From Propioniciclava coleopterorum (lineage in GTDB: Bacteria; Actinomycetota; Actinomycetes; Propionibacteriales; Propionibacteriaceae): 64,000 nt of DNA. Position 1 is the stretch's first letter; every line of letters starts with the position of its first letter. The notes below the pieces were generated by a model that did no database searches, was not told the origin of the DNA, and saw only the letters and a list, made by a program, of their open reading frames with translations. Positions 5,114 through 51,643 of this stretch are shown here, in pieces. The translations under genes were made by a program, and so were the position numbers. The stretch is taken from assembly GCF_011393335.1 (NCBI RefSeq), contig NZ_CP049865.1:868001-932000 (forward strand), written 5' to 3'.

Positions 5114-5940
5114 CAACCCGTCTTGTCCCTCGAAACCCGCCACATGCAGACGCCCCCGTTCGGTGCAGCCGCCCGCGTTCCTGCGGGGGCGTCTGCACCG
5201 AAAGGGGGCGTCTCGTTCTGGAAGCGGGCGACTCGTCCCAAGCGCGGGCGGCTCGTTCTGGAAGTGGGCAACTCGTCCCAACCGGAGGCGACTCGTCCCA
5301 AGCGCGGGCAACTCGTTCTGGAAGCGGGCAACTCGTCCCAACCGGGGGCGACACGTCACCGAAAGCGGGCGACACGCACCCGCACACAACCCGTCTCATC
5401 CCTCGATACCCGCCACATGCAGACGCCCCCGTTTGGTGCAGATGCCCGCGTTCCTGCGGGGGCGCCTGCACCCAAAGGGGCAGCTCGTTCTGGAAGCGGG
5501 CGACTCGTCCCAAACAGGGGCGACTCGTCCCGAACGAGGGCGACAGGTCCCAAACGCGGGCGACACGTCCCAAACGCGGGCAACTAGTCCCAAACGGGGG
5601 CGACTCGTCCCAAACGGGGGCGACTCGTCCCGAAAGCGGGCGACACGCACCCGCGCCACACAACCCGTCTCATCCCTCGACACCCGCCACATGCAGACGC
5701 CCCCGTTCGGTGCAGATGCCCGCGTTCCTGCGGGGGCGCCTGCACCCAAAGGGGGCAGCTCGTTCTGGAAGCGGGCGACTCGTCCCAAACGCGGGCGACA
5801 CGTCCCAAACGCGGGCGACACGTCCCAAACGCGGGTAACTCGTCCCAAACGCGGGTAACTCGTCCCAAACGGGGGCGACTCGTCGCAACCAGGGGCGACT
5901 CGTCCCAAACGGGGGCAACTCGTCCCAGCAGCCCGCCGCG
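5114..5940. repeat. Three ~274-bp repeats, each a hairpin module plus a 20-bp tandem array
   Basis: Three near-identical copies begin at 5114, 5387 and 5661 (each starting CAACCCGTCT) with periods of 273 and 274 bp. The last runs to the ispE stop codon. Each copy has a conserved ~125-bp module followed by several 20-bp units of the form GCGACTCGTCCCAAACGCGG. Copy 3 has about eight. In copy 1 the module holds a strong inverted repeat: arms at 5150-5168 and 5193-5211 pair at 18 of 19 positions around a loop that itself contains CCCGC/GCGGG. Stop codons are rare in every frame, which creates long spurious readings on both strands. I see no ribosome site or protein family, so I treat the block as non-coding. 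Unit variants (AACTCG, ACACG) show it has diverged by unit duplication. Confidence 0.9.
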
Positions 5941-6869
5941 TCAGGAGCCGATCAGCCGGGCGCCCGGGACGGGGCCGGATACGCGCCGGACGGCGCGGGC
6001 CAGCGGGCTGCCGGCCAGCGCGTTGGACAGCCGGACGGCGGCGTCCTCGTTCTCGGCGAGGAACGCGCACGTCGGCCCGGAGCCCGACACGATCCCGGCG
6101 AGCGCGCCGGCGGCGAGCCCGGCCTCCAGCACCTCGGCGAGGTGGGGGCGCAGCGACAGCGCGGCGGGCTGGAGGTCGTTGACGAGGTTGTCGGCCACCT
6201 GAGTGATGTCGCCGCTGGCCAGCCCGGCGAGCAGCCCGGCGGGGATCTCCGGGGCGGCGGCGGCGTCGGGGTTGAGCTCGTCGAAGCGGCGGAAGACCGC
6301 CGGGGTGGAGAGTTCGACGTCCGGCAGCGCCAGCACCCAGTGGTAGCTGCCGCGGCTCAGCATGGGCACCAGTTCGTCGCCGCGCCCGCGGCCCAGCGCC
6401 GTGGAGCCGAGCAGGCAGAACGGCACGTCGGCGCCGAGTTCGCGGGCCAGCTCGGCGAGTTCGTCGGGCGTGATGTCGATGTGCCACAGCGTCGCGCAGG
6501 CGACCAGTGCGGCGGCGGCGTCGGCCGAACCGCCGGCCATGCCCCGGTGACCGGGATGGTCTTGCGGATCCGCATCGCGACGCCGTCGTCCCGCCCGCCC
6601 GCGTGCTCGGCGAGCAGGTCGGCGGCGCGCAGCGCCAGGTTGGTCCCGTCGCTGGGCACGAGGTCGGCCTGTTCCCCCAGCACCTCCAGGGTGCGGCGTC
6701 CGGCGGGCGCGGCCCGCACCTCGAGCTCGTCGAACAGCGACACCGACTGGAAGACGGTCGCGAGCGGGTGGTAGCCGTCGGGCAGCACGCCGCCCACGCG
6801 CAGGGCGAGGTTGATCTTGCCCGGCGCCCGGACCTTGATCCGCTCGGCCTTGAGGTCGCGGCTGCTCAT
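5941..6869 (-). CDS. ispE: 4-diphosphocytidyl-2-C-methyl-D-erythritol kinase (single-base frameshift)
   Basis: This enzyme phosphorylates CDP-methylerythritol in the non-mevalonate isoprenoid pathway. The N-terminal frame (start ATG 6869) has the GHMP-kinase opening KVRAPGKINLALRVGG and PDGYHPLATVF. The C-terminal frame has the ATP loop MAGGSADAAAAL and the late GHMP motif IVSGSGPTCAFL. The expected sequence IPVTGGMAGGSADA is broken between the frames at a run of four C on the + strand (6542-6545); a fifth base restores it. Joined length is about 309 residues, normal for IspE. The gene order ispE, rsmA, tatD, rsmI is the standard actinobacterial neighbourhood. The frameshift is probably a sequencing error because the gene is essential in organisms using this pathway. 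Confidence 0.9.
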
Positions 6870-43120: not shown

Positions 43121-43665
43121 CTCGTCAACCGGCGCCCTCTGTCAACCAGCCCGCAGCCACCCTGGTCAACCAGCCCGCAGTCACCAGTCGACCGGCCGTC
43201 CCTGTCAACCAGCCGCAATGTCAACCAGCCCCCGCAATGTCAACCGGCCGCCGCACATGTCAACCGGCTTCCGCAGATGTCAACCGGCTTCCGCAGATGT
43301 CAACCGGCCTCCGTAAATGTCAACTGGCCCCCGCAGACGTCAACCGGCCTCCACAGATGTCAACCGGCCTCCGCACATGTCAACCGGCCCCCGCACATGT
43401 CAACCGGCCTCCGCAGATGTCAACCGGCTTCCGAAAGTGTCAACCGTCCGGCAATGTCAACCGGGTCGGTAATGTCAACCGGGTCGGTAATGTCAACCAG
43501 CCTCGAAATGTCAACCGTCCGGCAACATCAACCGGGCCCGCAGTGTCAACCAGCCCGGCAATGTCAACCAGCGGCCGAAAATGTCAACCGGCCGACGACA
43601 TCAACCGGGCCGGCAATGTCAACCAGTCGCCGCAATTCCAACGGGCCCCTGCGGTGCCAACCGGC
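43121..43665. repeat. Tandem array with TGTCAACC core, 17-20 bp period
   Basis: About 25 units share the core TGTCAACC. From about 43217 to 43436 they are regular 20-mers of the form ATGTCAACCGGCCTCCGCAG; after that they shorten to 17-19 bp (for example ATGTCAACCGGGTCGGTA). The 5' part (43121-43216) is degenerate. Stop codons are rare, so spurious long readings occur. No inverted repeat is obvious, and units vary in the last eight bases. There is no CRISPR spacer structure. The period of 20 bp is close to two helical turns, so sites would face the same side of DNA. Confidence 0.9.
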
Positions 43666-44050
43666 CCCTCAGCCGGCGCCGCGTCCAGTTCCCCCTCGAC
43701 GGCCCCGAGGGCGGCAGCGCGCGCGTCCGCTCGTTGGTCGCCTCTCGCTCGGTGCACAGCGCCGCCTCGAGCATCCGGCAGGCGCCCCCTATCAACACTC
43801 CGCCCACACCCCATGCCAACCGGCCTCCGCAATGCGATCCGGCTCCGAGAAGGGCAACCGGCCCGACAGCCGGCGCCGCGTCCGACTCCTCCTCGGCGGC
43901 CCGGCGGGCGGCCTGCGCGCGCCGCCCCGGCGACCAGCCACCCTTGCCAACCGGCCCCGCGATGTCGACCAGGCCACAGCCACCGCCGAACAGCCACCCC
44001 ACGTCAAGAACCAGCCCTCGCAGTGTCAACAGGCCACAGCCACTCGCTGT
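43659..44050. repeat. Two ~197-bp degenerate direct repeats, downstream part of the block
   Basis: Copies begin at 43659 and 43856. Each opens AACCGGCCC, then CAGCCGGCGCCGCGTCC, and continues with a GC-rich tract ending in a run such as GGCGGCC. Similarity is by eye and lessens toward the end. Two further near-copies of CAACCAGCCCGCC lie at about 44081-44140. Confidence 0.65.
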
Positions 44051-49346: not shown

Positions 49347-50620
49347 TCAGGCGGCCTGCGGCCCCCAGGCGTGCCGGTCGAGCTGGGCCGCCTTCGTGCC
49401 GAGGTGGCCGTTGCGGACCAGCATCGCCAGGGCGTCCAGGATCACCCGCGAGCTGAGCAGAGCGGTCTGTTCGGCCCAGTCATACGGCGGCGAACACTCG
49501 ACGACCTCGAGCCCGGAGATCCCCTCGCCGGCGATCATCCGAATCATGTTGAGCGCCTCGCGCGGAAGCAGGCCGCCCGGCTCGGGCCAGCCAGTCCCGG
49601 GAACGAAGCCGGCGTCGATGACGTCGATGTCGAAGGAGAGGTAGACCGCCTTGGCGTCCTTCCACGCCGTCTCGAGGGCGACCTCGGCGACCTTCTCGAT
49701 GCCGACCCGCTCGACGTCGCCGACCGTGATCACGGTGGTGCCCCGCTCGCGTCCCACCTTGACGCCGGCCCGCGGCGCCTGCCAGCCCCCGATGCCGACC
49801 TGCACGAGGTTCGTGGCGGGGGCGTTCTTGATGTTGGTGGCGTGGAACCACGGCGTCGTGTGCATCCGCTCGTCCAGGTCGGTCTCCTGGGTGTCGACGT
49901 GCCGGTCGAAGTGGATGATGCCGACGTTGCCGTCGACGTAGGGCGCCAGCCCCCGGATCGTCGGGTAGCCGATGGAGTGGTCGCCCCCGAGGATGACCGG
50001 GAAGACGCCCCGCTGGTAGACGTGCGCCATCGCCTGGCTGATCTGGTCGAAGGACTTCTCCAGGTTGCCCGGGATCGTGAAGATATCGCCGATGTCCACC
50101 ATGTTGAGCTGCTCGCGCAGGTCGATGCCCAGCTCGTAGCAGTAGGTACCGAACAGGTTCGTGGACCGGCGGATGCCCTGCGGGCCGAACCGGGCACCCG
50201 GCCGGTACGTCGCCCCGGAGTCCAGGGGCGCGCCGAAGATGGCGACCTCGGCGTCCTCGACCTGGTTGACGTCCTCGAGGAAGGGCGAGTTCAGGAACGT
50301 GCCGCGCTCCCCGCGAAGTGCGGCAGCTCGCCGCGGGAGAACGTGGGGATGGTGCGATCCTTCAGGGTCGGGGAACCCTCGAGGCCGAACGCGAGGCCGC
50401 GCTCGATCTCCTCGTCGTGTCGGAACAGGGAGATCCGCTCCTCGGCGAGCTGCGCCCAGCGTCCCTCCTTCGAGGCGAACGCGTCGCTGTGGGAGTGTTG
50501 ATGATCATGGGGGTGCCCATGACCGTGGGAGTGGGGCCGACCCTGCTCGTGGGCGAGCCGATGGGCCTCCGCTTCGTGATCGTGCTGTTCTGGATGCGGA
50601 TTCTGCGGGCGATCGGACAT
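49347..50620 (-). CDS. gdmH: Ureohydrolase, probable nickel-dependent guanidine hydrolase (single-base frameshift)
   Basis: A protein of about 424 residues of the arginase/agmatinase superfamily. All metal ligand motifs are present: GGDHSIGYP, HFDRHVDT (D-x-H-x-D) and LSFDIDVIDAGFVPGTGWPEPGG (S-x-D-x-D). The N-terminus is exceptional: 13 His in the first 44 residues, eight of them alternating at residues 30-44 (HSHGHGHPHDHQHSHS), which suits Ni(2+) binding. The frame changes at a run of four C on the + strand (50309-50312); one more base gives FAGERGTFLNSP and a continuous chain. ATG 50620 follows GGAGG. A guanidine-III riboswitch precedes it, so guanidine is the likely substrate (yielding urea and ammonia). 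Agmatinase or guanidinobutyrase activity remains possible. Confidence 0.78.
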
Positions 50621-50633
50621 TGCTGCCTCCCGT

Positions 50634-50677
50634 GTGACCGTCTTGGCTTCCGGTACGGTCACCCTCGTCGGTCGGGG
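50634..50677 (-). promoter_or_regulatory. Guanidine-III (ykkC-III) riboswitch
   Basis: Reading the minus strand: CCG (50671-50669), ACGAGG (50668-50663), GTGACCGT (50662-50655), A, CCGG (50653-50650), linker, then CAAGACGG (50645-50638) with its end pairing back. GTGACCGT and ACGGTCAC (50641-50634) form a perfect 8-bp helix, and CCG pairs with CGG for the short P1. The order ACGAGG - helix - CCGG - AAGACGG matches the class-III guanidine aptamer as I know it from the Thermobifida fusca structure. The last helix strand ends three bases before the GGAGG ribosome site (50630-50626), as expected for translational control. The gene it precedes belongs to the ureohydrolase family that includes guanidine hydrolase. 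Confidence 0.85.
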
Positions 50678-50700
50678 CGCTCCTTGCCACCTGCACCCTC

Positions 50701-50873: not shown

Positions 50874-51643
50874 GTGCAGCAACCCGACCATGGCGCACCC
50901 TTCCCCCACGCGACGACGCCGGAGGAGTTCGCCGCCAACCTGGACGCCGTGCGCGCCCGGATCGCGGCGGCGGCCCACCGCGCCGGACGCGAGGCGTCCG
51001 AGGTCGAACTGCTGCCGGTGAGCAAGACCGTGCCGCAGGAGCGGCTGCGCGCGGCGATCGCCGCCGGCTGCACCACCCTGGGGAGAACAAGGTGCAGGAG
51101 GCCGTCCGCAAGCACGGCGAGCTCGCCGACCTGGACGTCCGCTGGTCGCTGATCGGGCATCTGCAGCGCAACAAGGCCAAGGACGTCGCCGCCATCGCCG
51201 CCGAGTTCCACGCCCTGGACAGCCTGCGCGTCGCCGAGGCCCTCGACCGCCGACTGGACGCCCTGGGCCGCCCGCTGGACGTGTACGTCCAGGTGAACAC
51301 GTCGAGCGAGCCGCAGAAGTACGGCGTCGCCCCCGACGAACTGCCGGGCTTCCTGGCCGACCTGACCGCCTACCCGACGCTACGGGTGAAGGGCCTGATG
51401 ACGCTGGCGCTGTTCACCAGCGACCAGGAGCGCGTCCGGAAGTGCTTCGCGCTGCTGCGCGACCTGCGCGACCGGGCTCGGGCCACCGACCCCGACCTGA
51501 TCGGACCCGGCGGGCTGTCGATGGGCATGTCGGGCGACTTCGAGACCGCGATCGAGGAGGGTGCCACCTGCGTCCGGGTGGGCCAGGCGATCTTCGGCGC
51601 CCGCCCGACCCCGGACAGCATGTACTGGCCGGACGCCCGCTGA
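50874..51643 (+). CDS. YggS-family pyridoxal-phosphate-binding protein (single-base frameshift)
   Basis: A PLP-homeostasis protein of about 256 residues, a non-catalytic TIM-barrel related to alanine racemase N-domain. The first frame (GTG 50874) has VELLPVSKTVPQERLRAAIAAGCTTLG with the PLP-binding lysine in VSKT. The second frame begins ENKVQEAVRKHGELADLDVRWSLIGHLQRNKAKDV. The join is a run of four G (51080-51083); a fifth gives the standard LGENKVQEA. Later motifs QVNTSSEPQKYGV and GLSMGMSGDFETAIEEGATCVRVGQAIFG are complete. Confidence 0.92.

What the first reader, a model, noticed from the sequence alone, without database searches (positions are those of the whole stretch)
49347..50677. 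Guanidine-III riboswitch on a ureohydrolase that carries its own histidine-rich tail
The minus strand upstream of the gene has ACGAGG, an 8-bp perfect helix (GTGACCGT/ACGGTCAC), CCGG and AAGACGG in the class-III guanidine order, with the ribosome site three bases after the helix. The gene is in the arginase/agmatinase family with every metal ligand. Known guanidine hydrolase is a nickel enzyme that needs helper proteins. This one has 13 His in its first 44 residues, eight alternating, like nickel-storage tails of HypB or SlyD. The gene may have fused nickel handling to guanidine hydrolysis. The sequence shows the motifs; substrate and nickel role are inferred.
Basis: partly seen in the sequence, partly recalled or inferred. 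Interest (0 to 1): 0.8.

Follow-up and report, generated by a model that had tools for sequence, protein, structure and literature searches.

The report
Guanidine-splitting enzyme with histidine-rich tail
A bacterium carries a gene of the guanidine-splitting nickel-enzyme kind, preceded by a slightly shortened form of a known guanidine-sensing RNA switch and beginning with a histidine-rich tail that looks metal-binding, in a genome where the usual nickel-delivery helper genes were not found.

Summary
A guanidine-III (ykkC-III) aptamer lies on the minus strand just before an ATG, and the protein starts with 13 His in 44 residues. Rfam gives the aptamer 24.7 bits (cut-off 36), weak by itself. 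It is credible because four homologous loci in three other genera carry the same departure at the same place: the P1 pseudoknot helix is one base shorter on BOTH strands, while the guanidine-contacting bases are kept. The enzyme is of the guanidinase (GdmH) clade, with all metal ligands and the Thr/His/Trp guanidinase signature. The tail marks one supported 11-member clade (7 members with 7-13 His, 4 with only HSHSDAF). Of 23 genomes tested for HypB/UreG, HypA and urease, two lack all three: this one and Cellulomonas triticagri, whose tails have the most His (13 and 11). A built-in nickel-binding tail is thus plausible but unproven: five other tailed genomes have HypB and/or UreG. The window copy is split between two frames near 50300; the 80 relatives are open there. 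Guanidine-III before speB genes was reported in 2010; I found no report of the shortened aptamer or the tailed clade in my searches of an open-licence library.

The parts
50632..50693 (-). guanidine-III (ykkC-III) riboswitch aptamer, RF01763, sub-threshold match
   Evidence: 24.7 bits, cut-off 36; rank 2 in own genome; 21.5 bits, E 0.0084, with model R1 built from 30 other aptamers
50632..50671 (-). variant core CCGACGAG...CCGTACCGG...AAGACGG: P1 of 3 bp (50671-50669 with 50652-50650) instead of CCGG/CCGG
   Evidence: same departure in L042, L043, L048, L049; among 396 genomes sampled from the phylum only the own genome matches the pattern
50634..50662 (-). P2 helix, 8 bp, GTGACCGT/ACGGTCAC
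   Evidence: 95.8% of cells paired, 4 pairs with two-sided changes over 9 distinct of 10 chosen sequences
50626..50631 (-). ribosome-binding site GGGAGG, 5 nt before the ATG
   Evidence: sequence
50291..50620 (-). first frame piece of the guanidinase gene: tail, WAQ...HFAG region, then out-of-frame stop
50489..50620 (-). His-rich tail, residues 1-44, 13 His
   Evidence: relatives
49347..50300 (-). catalytic core of guanidinase (PF00491), second frame

Best explanation
A guanidine-induced gene for a nickel-type guanidinase, probably gained horizontally. Free guanidine binds the mRNA leader, stabilises the pseudoknot and exposes the adjacent ribosome-binding site; the enzyme then splits guanidine into urea and ammonium. 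The leader is a P1-shortened variant of guanidine-III: one pair of the CCGG/CCGG helix is missing through one base on each strand, while the equivalents of C6, G7 and G17, which contact guanidine, are kept. The His-rich tail most likely acts as a tethered buffer for nickel (or another divalent metal) that supplies the two-metal site, doing on the enzyme part of what HypB or UreG does elsewhere. Shown: sequence, homology, the conserved variant leader, the clade-limited tail, no helper gene found. Inferred: ligand, translational switching, nickel as the metal, tail function, horizontal gain. My odds: guanidinase 0.92; working guanidine-III-type aptamer in the clade 0.88; tail binds Ni/Co/Zn in vivo 0.7; tail helps load the active site 0.45; this copy active as sequenced 0.3.
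For: Best solved relatives of the core: N. inopinata guanidinase 9FEK (E 1.7e-134) and Synechocystis guanidinase 7ESR/7OI1 (1.3e-128); the next family is at 9.6e-45. Thr, His and Trp named for guanidinases in PMC11410670 (passages) are present by my residue counting on the alignment. The six metal ligands (positions recalled for the family) are invariant in 26 of 26 rows. The model of the intact homologue L043 (89% identical to the core) matches 9FEK first, 62% identity, and 7ESR, 59%. R1 finds a same-strand aptamer within 600 nt upstream of the core in 52 of 80 loci; 43 of 80 have the canonical core, 4 of 80 the variant. Tailed and HSHSDAF rows form one clade, support 96/95. The tail is predicted disordered in L043 (pLDDT <50 for 1-43) and keeps its His content while its sequence varies. 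HypB/UreG, HypA and urease alpha not found in G000 and G392; G000 has a NicO-family transporter. Window versus L042: 22/9/124 differences at codon positions 1/2/3 over 310 codons, so the core has been under selection. Found in 1 of 391 genomes of the order at E<=1e-60, the own one.
Against: Aptamer below Rfam's cut-off, in a score range where chance matches occur; the nearly invariant A30 is C here. Six of 11 clade members have no aptamer that I could find upstream, so tail and variant are not strictly coupled. Tailed genomes L042, L044-L046 and L051 have HypB and/or UreG-like matches; the link to helper absence rests on 2 genomes, one a draft. G392 has no NicO match; other nickel importers were not searched. 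The long tail is not one clade within the 11 (at least two changes). The window copy has a broken frame. No metal, ligand or substrate was measured.
Confidence: 0.6

Rival explanations
1. Guanidinase with a guanidine-III switch, but the tail is not for nickel loading: it buffers zinc, cobalt or copper, is a spacer, or is neutral growth from a short HSHSDAF stub.
For: Four clade members keep only HSHSDAF; tail length and sequence vary widely; five tailed genomes have HypB and/or UreG-like matches; the comammox enzyme has no dedicated chaperone known.
Against: His count stays at 7-13 in 7 members of five genera (counting the unnamed one of the window, and Mycolicibacterium once) while the surrounding sequence changes; the two genomes without helpers have the two highest counts.
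Confidence: 0.35
2. The window copy is a decaying pseudogene with a decaying riboswitch.
For: Frame break near 50300 and another in the neighbouring YggS-like gene; aptamer below cut-off; end branch 0.11 against about 0.03 for L042 and L043.
Against: The aptamer departure is shared by four other loci; differences lie mostly at third codon positions; frame breaks in two adjacent genes can also be assembly errors, which cannot be told apart here.
Confidence: 0.2
3. Ordinary agmatinase.
For: NCBIfam agmatinase models match; TIGR01230 misses its cut-off by only 5.6 bits (core piece only).
Against: Much stronger match to two guanidinases than to agmatinases; guanidinase signature residues present; guanidine aptamer upstream.
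Confidence: 0.03
4. The shortened leader is a variant class that senses another guanidino compound, such as methylguanidine, and the enzyme follows.
For: Coordinated change of positions invariant in 30 other aptamers, seen only in one enzyme clade among the loci held; [quoted passage not shown]
Against: Equivalents of the guanidine-contacting C6, G7 and G17 are unchanged, and the enzyme keeps the guanidine-specificity residues.
Confidence: 0.1

Closest known systems
Guanidine-III (ykkC-III) riboswitch, RF01763
   Same: P2 helix with two-sided changes, ACGAGG third strand, CCGTA, AAGACGG; just before the ribosome site of a speB-like gene
   Different: P1 CCGG/CCGG reduced to CCG/CGG by one base on each side; A30/C31 not kept in all five; shorter linker in the window; 24.7 bits against a cut-off of 36 (two of the four relatives with the variant do pass 36)
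Guanidinase of Nitrospira inopinata (9FEK) and GdmH/Sll1077 of Synechocystis (7ESR, 7OI1)
   Same: Core closely related (L043: 62% and 59%), same metal ligands and specificity residues, guanidine-riboswitch control
   Different: Guanidine-III instead of guanidine-I; His-rich N-terminal tail; no hypA/hypB found; no urease found in this genome
His-rich nickel helpers HypB and UreG (SlyD recalled)
   Same: His-dense flexible segment
   Different: Here on the enzyme itself; no GTPase domain
Metformin hydrolase MefH / dimethylguanidine hydrolase
   Same: Nickel ureohydrolases activated by HypA/HypB (passages of PMC11399263)
   Different: 24-28% identity in the fold search; heteromeric; helper genes adjacent

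Membership tests
Guanidine-III riboswitch (RF01763) | Score at or above the gathering threshold | tested here: not met
   24.7 against 36 bits; relatives with the same variant: 41.5 (L042), 40.4 (L043), 35.4 (L049), 34.1 (L048) (places mapped to loci by me)
Guanidine-III riboswitch (RF01763) | Guanidine-contacting bases C6, G7, G17 | tested here: met
   ACGAGG and CCGTA intact; contacts from passages of PMC5696562
Guanidine-III riboswitch (RF01763) | P1 of four pairs CCGG/CCGG plus the G29-C20 pair | tested here: not met
   three pairs CCG/CGG; G29 and C20 equivalents present (my mapping)
Guanidine-III riboswitch (RF01763) | P2 helix supported by two-sided changes | tested here: met
   12 cells changed on both sides and 95.8% paired, 0 of 500 shuffles as high; but the number of pairs with such a change (4) is reached by 132 of 500 shuffles; 10 chosen sequences, 9 distinct
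Guanidine-III riboswitch (RF01763) | Binds guanidine | not testable with these tools
   needs in-line probing
Guanidinase (GdmH) | Thr, His and Trp at N. inopinata 105, 222, 313 | tested here: met
   residue counting on the alignment with an offset of two; definition from passages
Guanidinase (GdmH) | Closest to proven guanidinases | tested here: met
   for the window core; for the model of L043
Guanidinase (GdmH) | Hydrolyses guanidine with nickel | not testable with these tools
   needs enzyme assay
Agmatinase (TIGR01230, PRK02190) | Curated cut-off | tested here: not met
   168.7 against 174.3; 198.6 against 302, core piece only
HypA/HypB- or UreG-assisted nickel enzyme | Helper genes in the genome | tested here: not met
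   no TIGR00073 match at E<=1e-5; no PF01155 match over cut-off; other kinds of helper not searched

The most novel reading that the evidence does not exclude
A clade of guanidinases has fused its own nickel-delivery segment and can work without HypA, HypB or UreG, and it is switched on by a shortened guanidine-III variant that arose by paired loss of one base on each strand of the P1 pseudoknot helix. If so, it offers an answer to how chaperone-free guanidinases get nickel, which is called unclear for the comammox enzyme.
Probability: 0.3. Interest if true: 0.7.

Novelty: new variant of a known kind. Interest (0 to 1): 0.55.

Why it matters
[quoted passage not shown] A guanidinase with a built-in His tail in a genome where HypA, HypB, UreG and urease were not found gives a direct experiment: delete the tail and measure nickel. 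The paired one-base loss in P1 is a natural test of how short the guanidine-III pseudoknot can be, and shows real-looking members that fall under Rfam's cut-off.

Tried and rejected
Idea that the weak aptamer score reflects sequencing error, as the frame breaks might: rejected for the aptamer, because L042, L043, L048 and L049 have the same departures.

Idea that the tail strictly replaces helpers: rejected as a rule, because five tailed genomes (L042, L044, L045, L046, L051) have HypB and/or UreG-like matches.

Folding the leader alone: the 86-nt leader is not unusual (z -0.21). The 40-nt core of the window is (z -2.89), the cores of L042, L043 and L048 are not (z -0.11, -0.06, -1.26). Such folding ignores the pseudoknot.

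Search for the variant elsewhere: 1 of 396 genomes sampled from the phylum, the own one; in the 128 loci held, only the four relatives and loci cut from the own genome. The sample is small against the phylum, so rarity is not proven.

Plasmid search: 11 records encode a relative at E<=1e-80, best 82.8% identity; their N-termini were not examined.

One search aligned the variant cores with wrong coordinates and was replaced. The frame scan counts 18 same-strand frame switches; many will be ordinary overlapping genes, so it was used only for the two breaks at about 50310 and 51080. In one search the line for the window tail used a wrong frame; the tail was read again.

Start codons of relatives are my choice. 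The tail table covers 31 of the 80 loci and the alignment 25 of the 80 plus the window core. Helper tests cover 23 or 24 genomes, chosen by me. Paper searches list only part of what they match (20 of 776; 20 of 68; 20 of 50) and only titles, counts and abstract starts were seen there.

Full report
OBSERVATION. The minus strand reads CCGACGAGGGTGACCGTACCGGAAGCCAAGACGGTCACACGGGAGGCAGCAATG. Rfam's guanidine-III model aligns end to end at 50632-50693 with 24.7 bits against a cut-off of 36; the cut-off scan of the window lists only a tRNA. In the own genome it is the second hit (E 0.0067). The first, 61.5 bits at C1:3454257, precedes a gene whose translation reads like an SMR transporter (name recalled, not scanned). 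The third has 21.4 bits. In 117 genomes of the order, 31 sub-cut-off matches were listed, 9 of them at 24.7 bits or more, and with that call's stricter filters the window match was not reported. The score alone is therefore not decisive.

FRAME BREAK. The first frame ends at 50291; the catalytic core runs in another frame from about 50300 to 49347. The 80 homologous loci are open across this place in one frame. The neighbouring plus-strand gene is also split between 50874-51152 and 51092-51643: the second piece matches Ala_racemase_N only from profile position 68 on, the first matches no Pfam family (the name YggS is recalled). Mutation and assembly error cannot be told apart here. The core differs from L042 at 22/9/124 first/second/third codon positions over 310 codons, the pattern of a gene under selection.

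WHAT THE ENZYME IS. The core's best solved relatives are 9FEK and 7ESR/7OI1 (E 1.7e-134 and 1.3e-128); the next is at 9.6e-45. The literature defines guanidinases by Thr105, His222 and Trp313 of N. inopinata (passages of PMC11410670). Counting residues on the alignment with an offset of two, all three are present. The six metal ligands (in GGDHS, HFDRHVD and SFDID; positions recalled) are invariant in 26 of 26 aligned rows. NCBIfam agmatinase models match below their cut-offs, one by only 5.6 bits. The AlphaFold model of the intact homologue L043 has mean pLDDT 73.1; its first match is 9FEK at 62% identity, with TM 0.66 and rmsd 14.1, so I use it only for the fold and the disordered tail.

THE APTAMER IS A SHORTENED VARIANT. 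In 30 guanidine-III aptamers from the order, one of them from the own genome, CCGG before ACGA and CCCGG in the loop are invariant. The window has CCG and CCGG. Four homologous loci have the same departure before their guanidinase: Streptomyces albipurpureus L042, Cellulomonas triticagri L043 and two Actinomycetospora, L048 and L049. In the crystal structure, nucleotides 1-4 pair with 21-24, G29 is inserted and pairs with C20, and guanidine contacts C6, G7 and G17 (passages of PMC5696562). By my mapping the variant loses one P1 pair through one base on each strand and keeps G29, C20, C6, G7 and G17. P2 is supported: 95.8% of cells pair and 12 cells change on both sides, neither reached in 500 shuffles; but the number of pairs with such a change, 4, is reached in 132 of 500 (10 chosen sequences, 9 distinct). 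With Rfam's model the four relatives score 34.1-41.5 bits, two of them over 36; with R1 they score 23.6-38.6 and the window 21.5.

HOW WIDESPREAD. R1 finds a same-strand aptamer within 600 nt upstream of the core in 52 of 80 loci, the weakest at 19.0 bits. A canonical pattern occurs in 43 of 80, the variant pattern in 4 of 80. The 28 without a hit include L044-L047, L050 and L051. In a sample of 396 genomes of the phylum only the own genome matches the variant pattern. The gene was found in 1 of 391 genomes of the order at E<=1e-60, which suggests horizontal gain (inference).

THE TAIL. In the tree of 81 rows, the window, L042-L046 and L051 (7-13 His before the WAQ motif) and L047-L050 (2 His, HSHSDAF) form one clade with support 96/95. 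The long tail is not one clean clade inside it (at least two changes). Of the 21 tabulated loci outside the clade, 20 have 0-3 His in that segment; L111 has 5. The tail of L043 is predicted disordered.

HELPERS. HypB-model matches at E<=1e-5 occur in 21 of 23 genomes, over cut-off in 15; the weaker ones, often beside urease, I read as UreG. None in G000 and G392. HypA is over cut-off in 18 of 24; none in G000, G392, G398, G400, G409 and G412. Urease alpha matches in 20 of 23; none in G000, G392 and G406. So the two genomes without any of the three are the two whose tails have 13 and 11 His. Against a replacement rule: L042, L044-L046 and L051 are tailed and have HypB and/or UreG-like matches. 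G000 has one NicO-family transporter and G392 none. No urea carboxylase over cut-off was found in G000 or in three relatives, so urea may simply leave the cell (inference).

MECHANISM. Guanidine binding to guanidine-III is thought to expose the ribosome site (PMC5696562; PMC12186494; passages). Guanidinase gives urea and ammonium. Nickel is inferred from the family: the N. inopinata crystal enzyme holds one nickel and one manganese, the Synechocystis enzyme is nickel-dependent and its operon encodes two loading proteins, and N. inopinata's loading is called unclear (passages). Related riboswitch-controlled genes often sit in operons with hypA and hypB (passage of PMC8390497). A tethered His segment as nickel buffer is my inference.

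WHAT WAS KNOWN. Weinberg et al. 2010 reported ykkC-III upstream of emrE and speB genes (passages of PMC2864571), so the riboswitch-gene pair is not new. I found no report of a His-rich guanidinase tail in searches, nor of a P1-shortened guanidine-III variant in searches. These cover an open-licence library and list only part of their matches; Sherlock and Breaker 2017 is not held.

VERDICT. New variant of a known kind.

Noticed in passing
50874-51643 (+): YggS-like gene (alanine racemase N-domain in its second piece) split between two overlapping frames: a second frame break within 1 kb of the guanidinase.
   Followed up: partly
L011 about 5928-6323 (-), own genome C1 about 3,454,000: Canonical guanidine-III aptamer (61.5 bits) before a gene whose translation reads like an SMR (Gdx-type) exporter.
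   Followed up: partly
L048 and L049, about 2.2-3.3 kb upstream of the guanidinase core: NicO-family nickel/cobalt transporter gene near the guanidinase in both Actinomycetospora genomes.
   Followed up: partly
25 of the loci (cluster 1): A conserved protein that reads like an APC permease (not scanned) lies near the guanidinase, as in comammox bacteria; next to the window gene there are TetR and MFS genes instead.
   Followed up: partly
15 loci (cluster 14), e.g. L053 6752-7555: Protein with MPTHSHGHPHP and a UreG-like P-loop (recalled, not scanned) near mycobacterial guanidinases: a His-rich segment on a presumed helper instead of on the enzyme.
   Followed up: no
L042 7619-7662, L043 1421-1464: The ACGAGG strand can pair with a CCUCGU just before the ribosome site, a possible OFF state; the window leader has no such CCUCGU.
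   Followed up: no
L111 2264: Guanidinase of an uncultured Rubrobacteraceae starts MGGNHHHHHN: a separate His run in another branch.
   Followed up: no
43212-43666: Degenerate tandem array, period 20, 24 copies, 76% matches, in a stretch with little coding signal.
   Followed up: no
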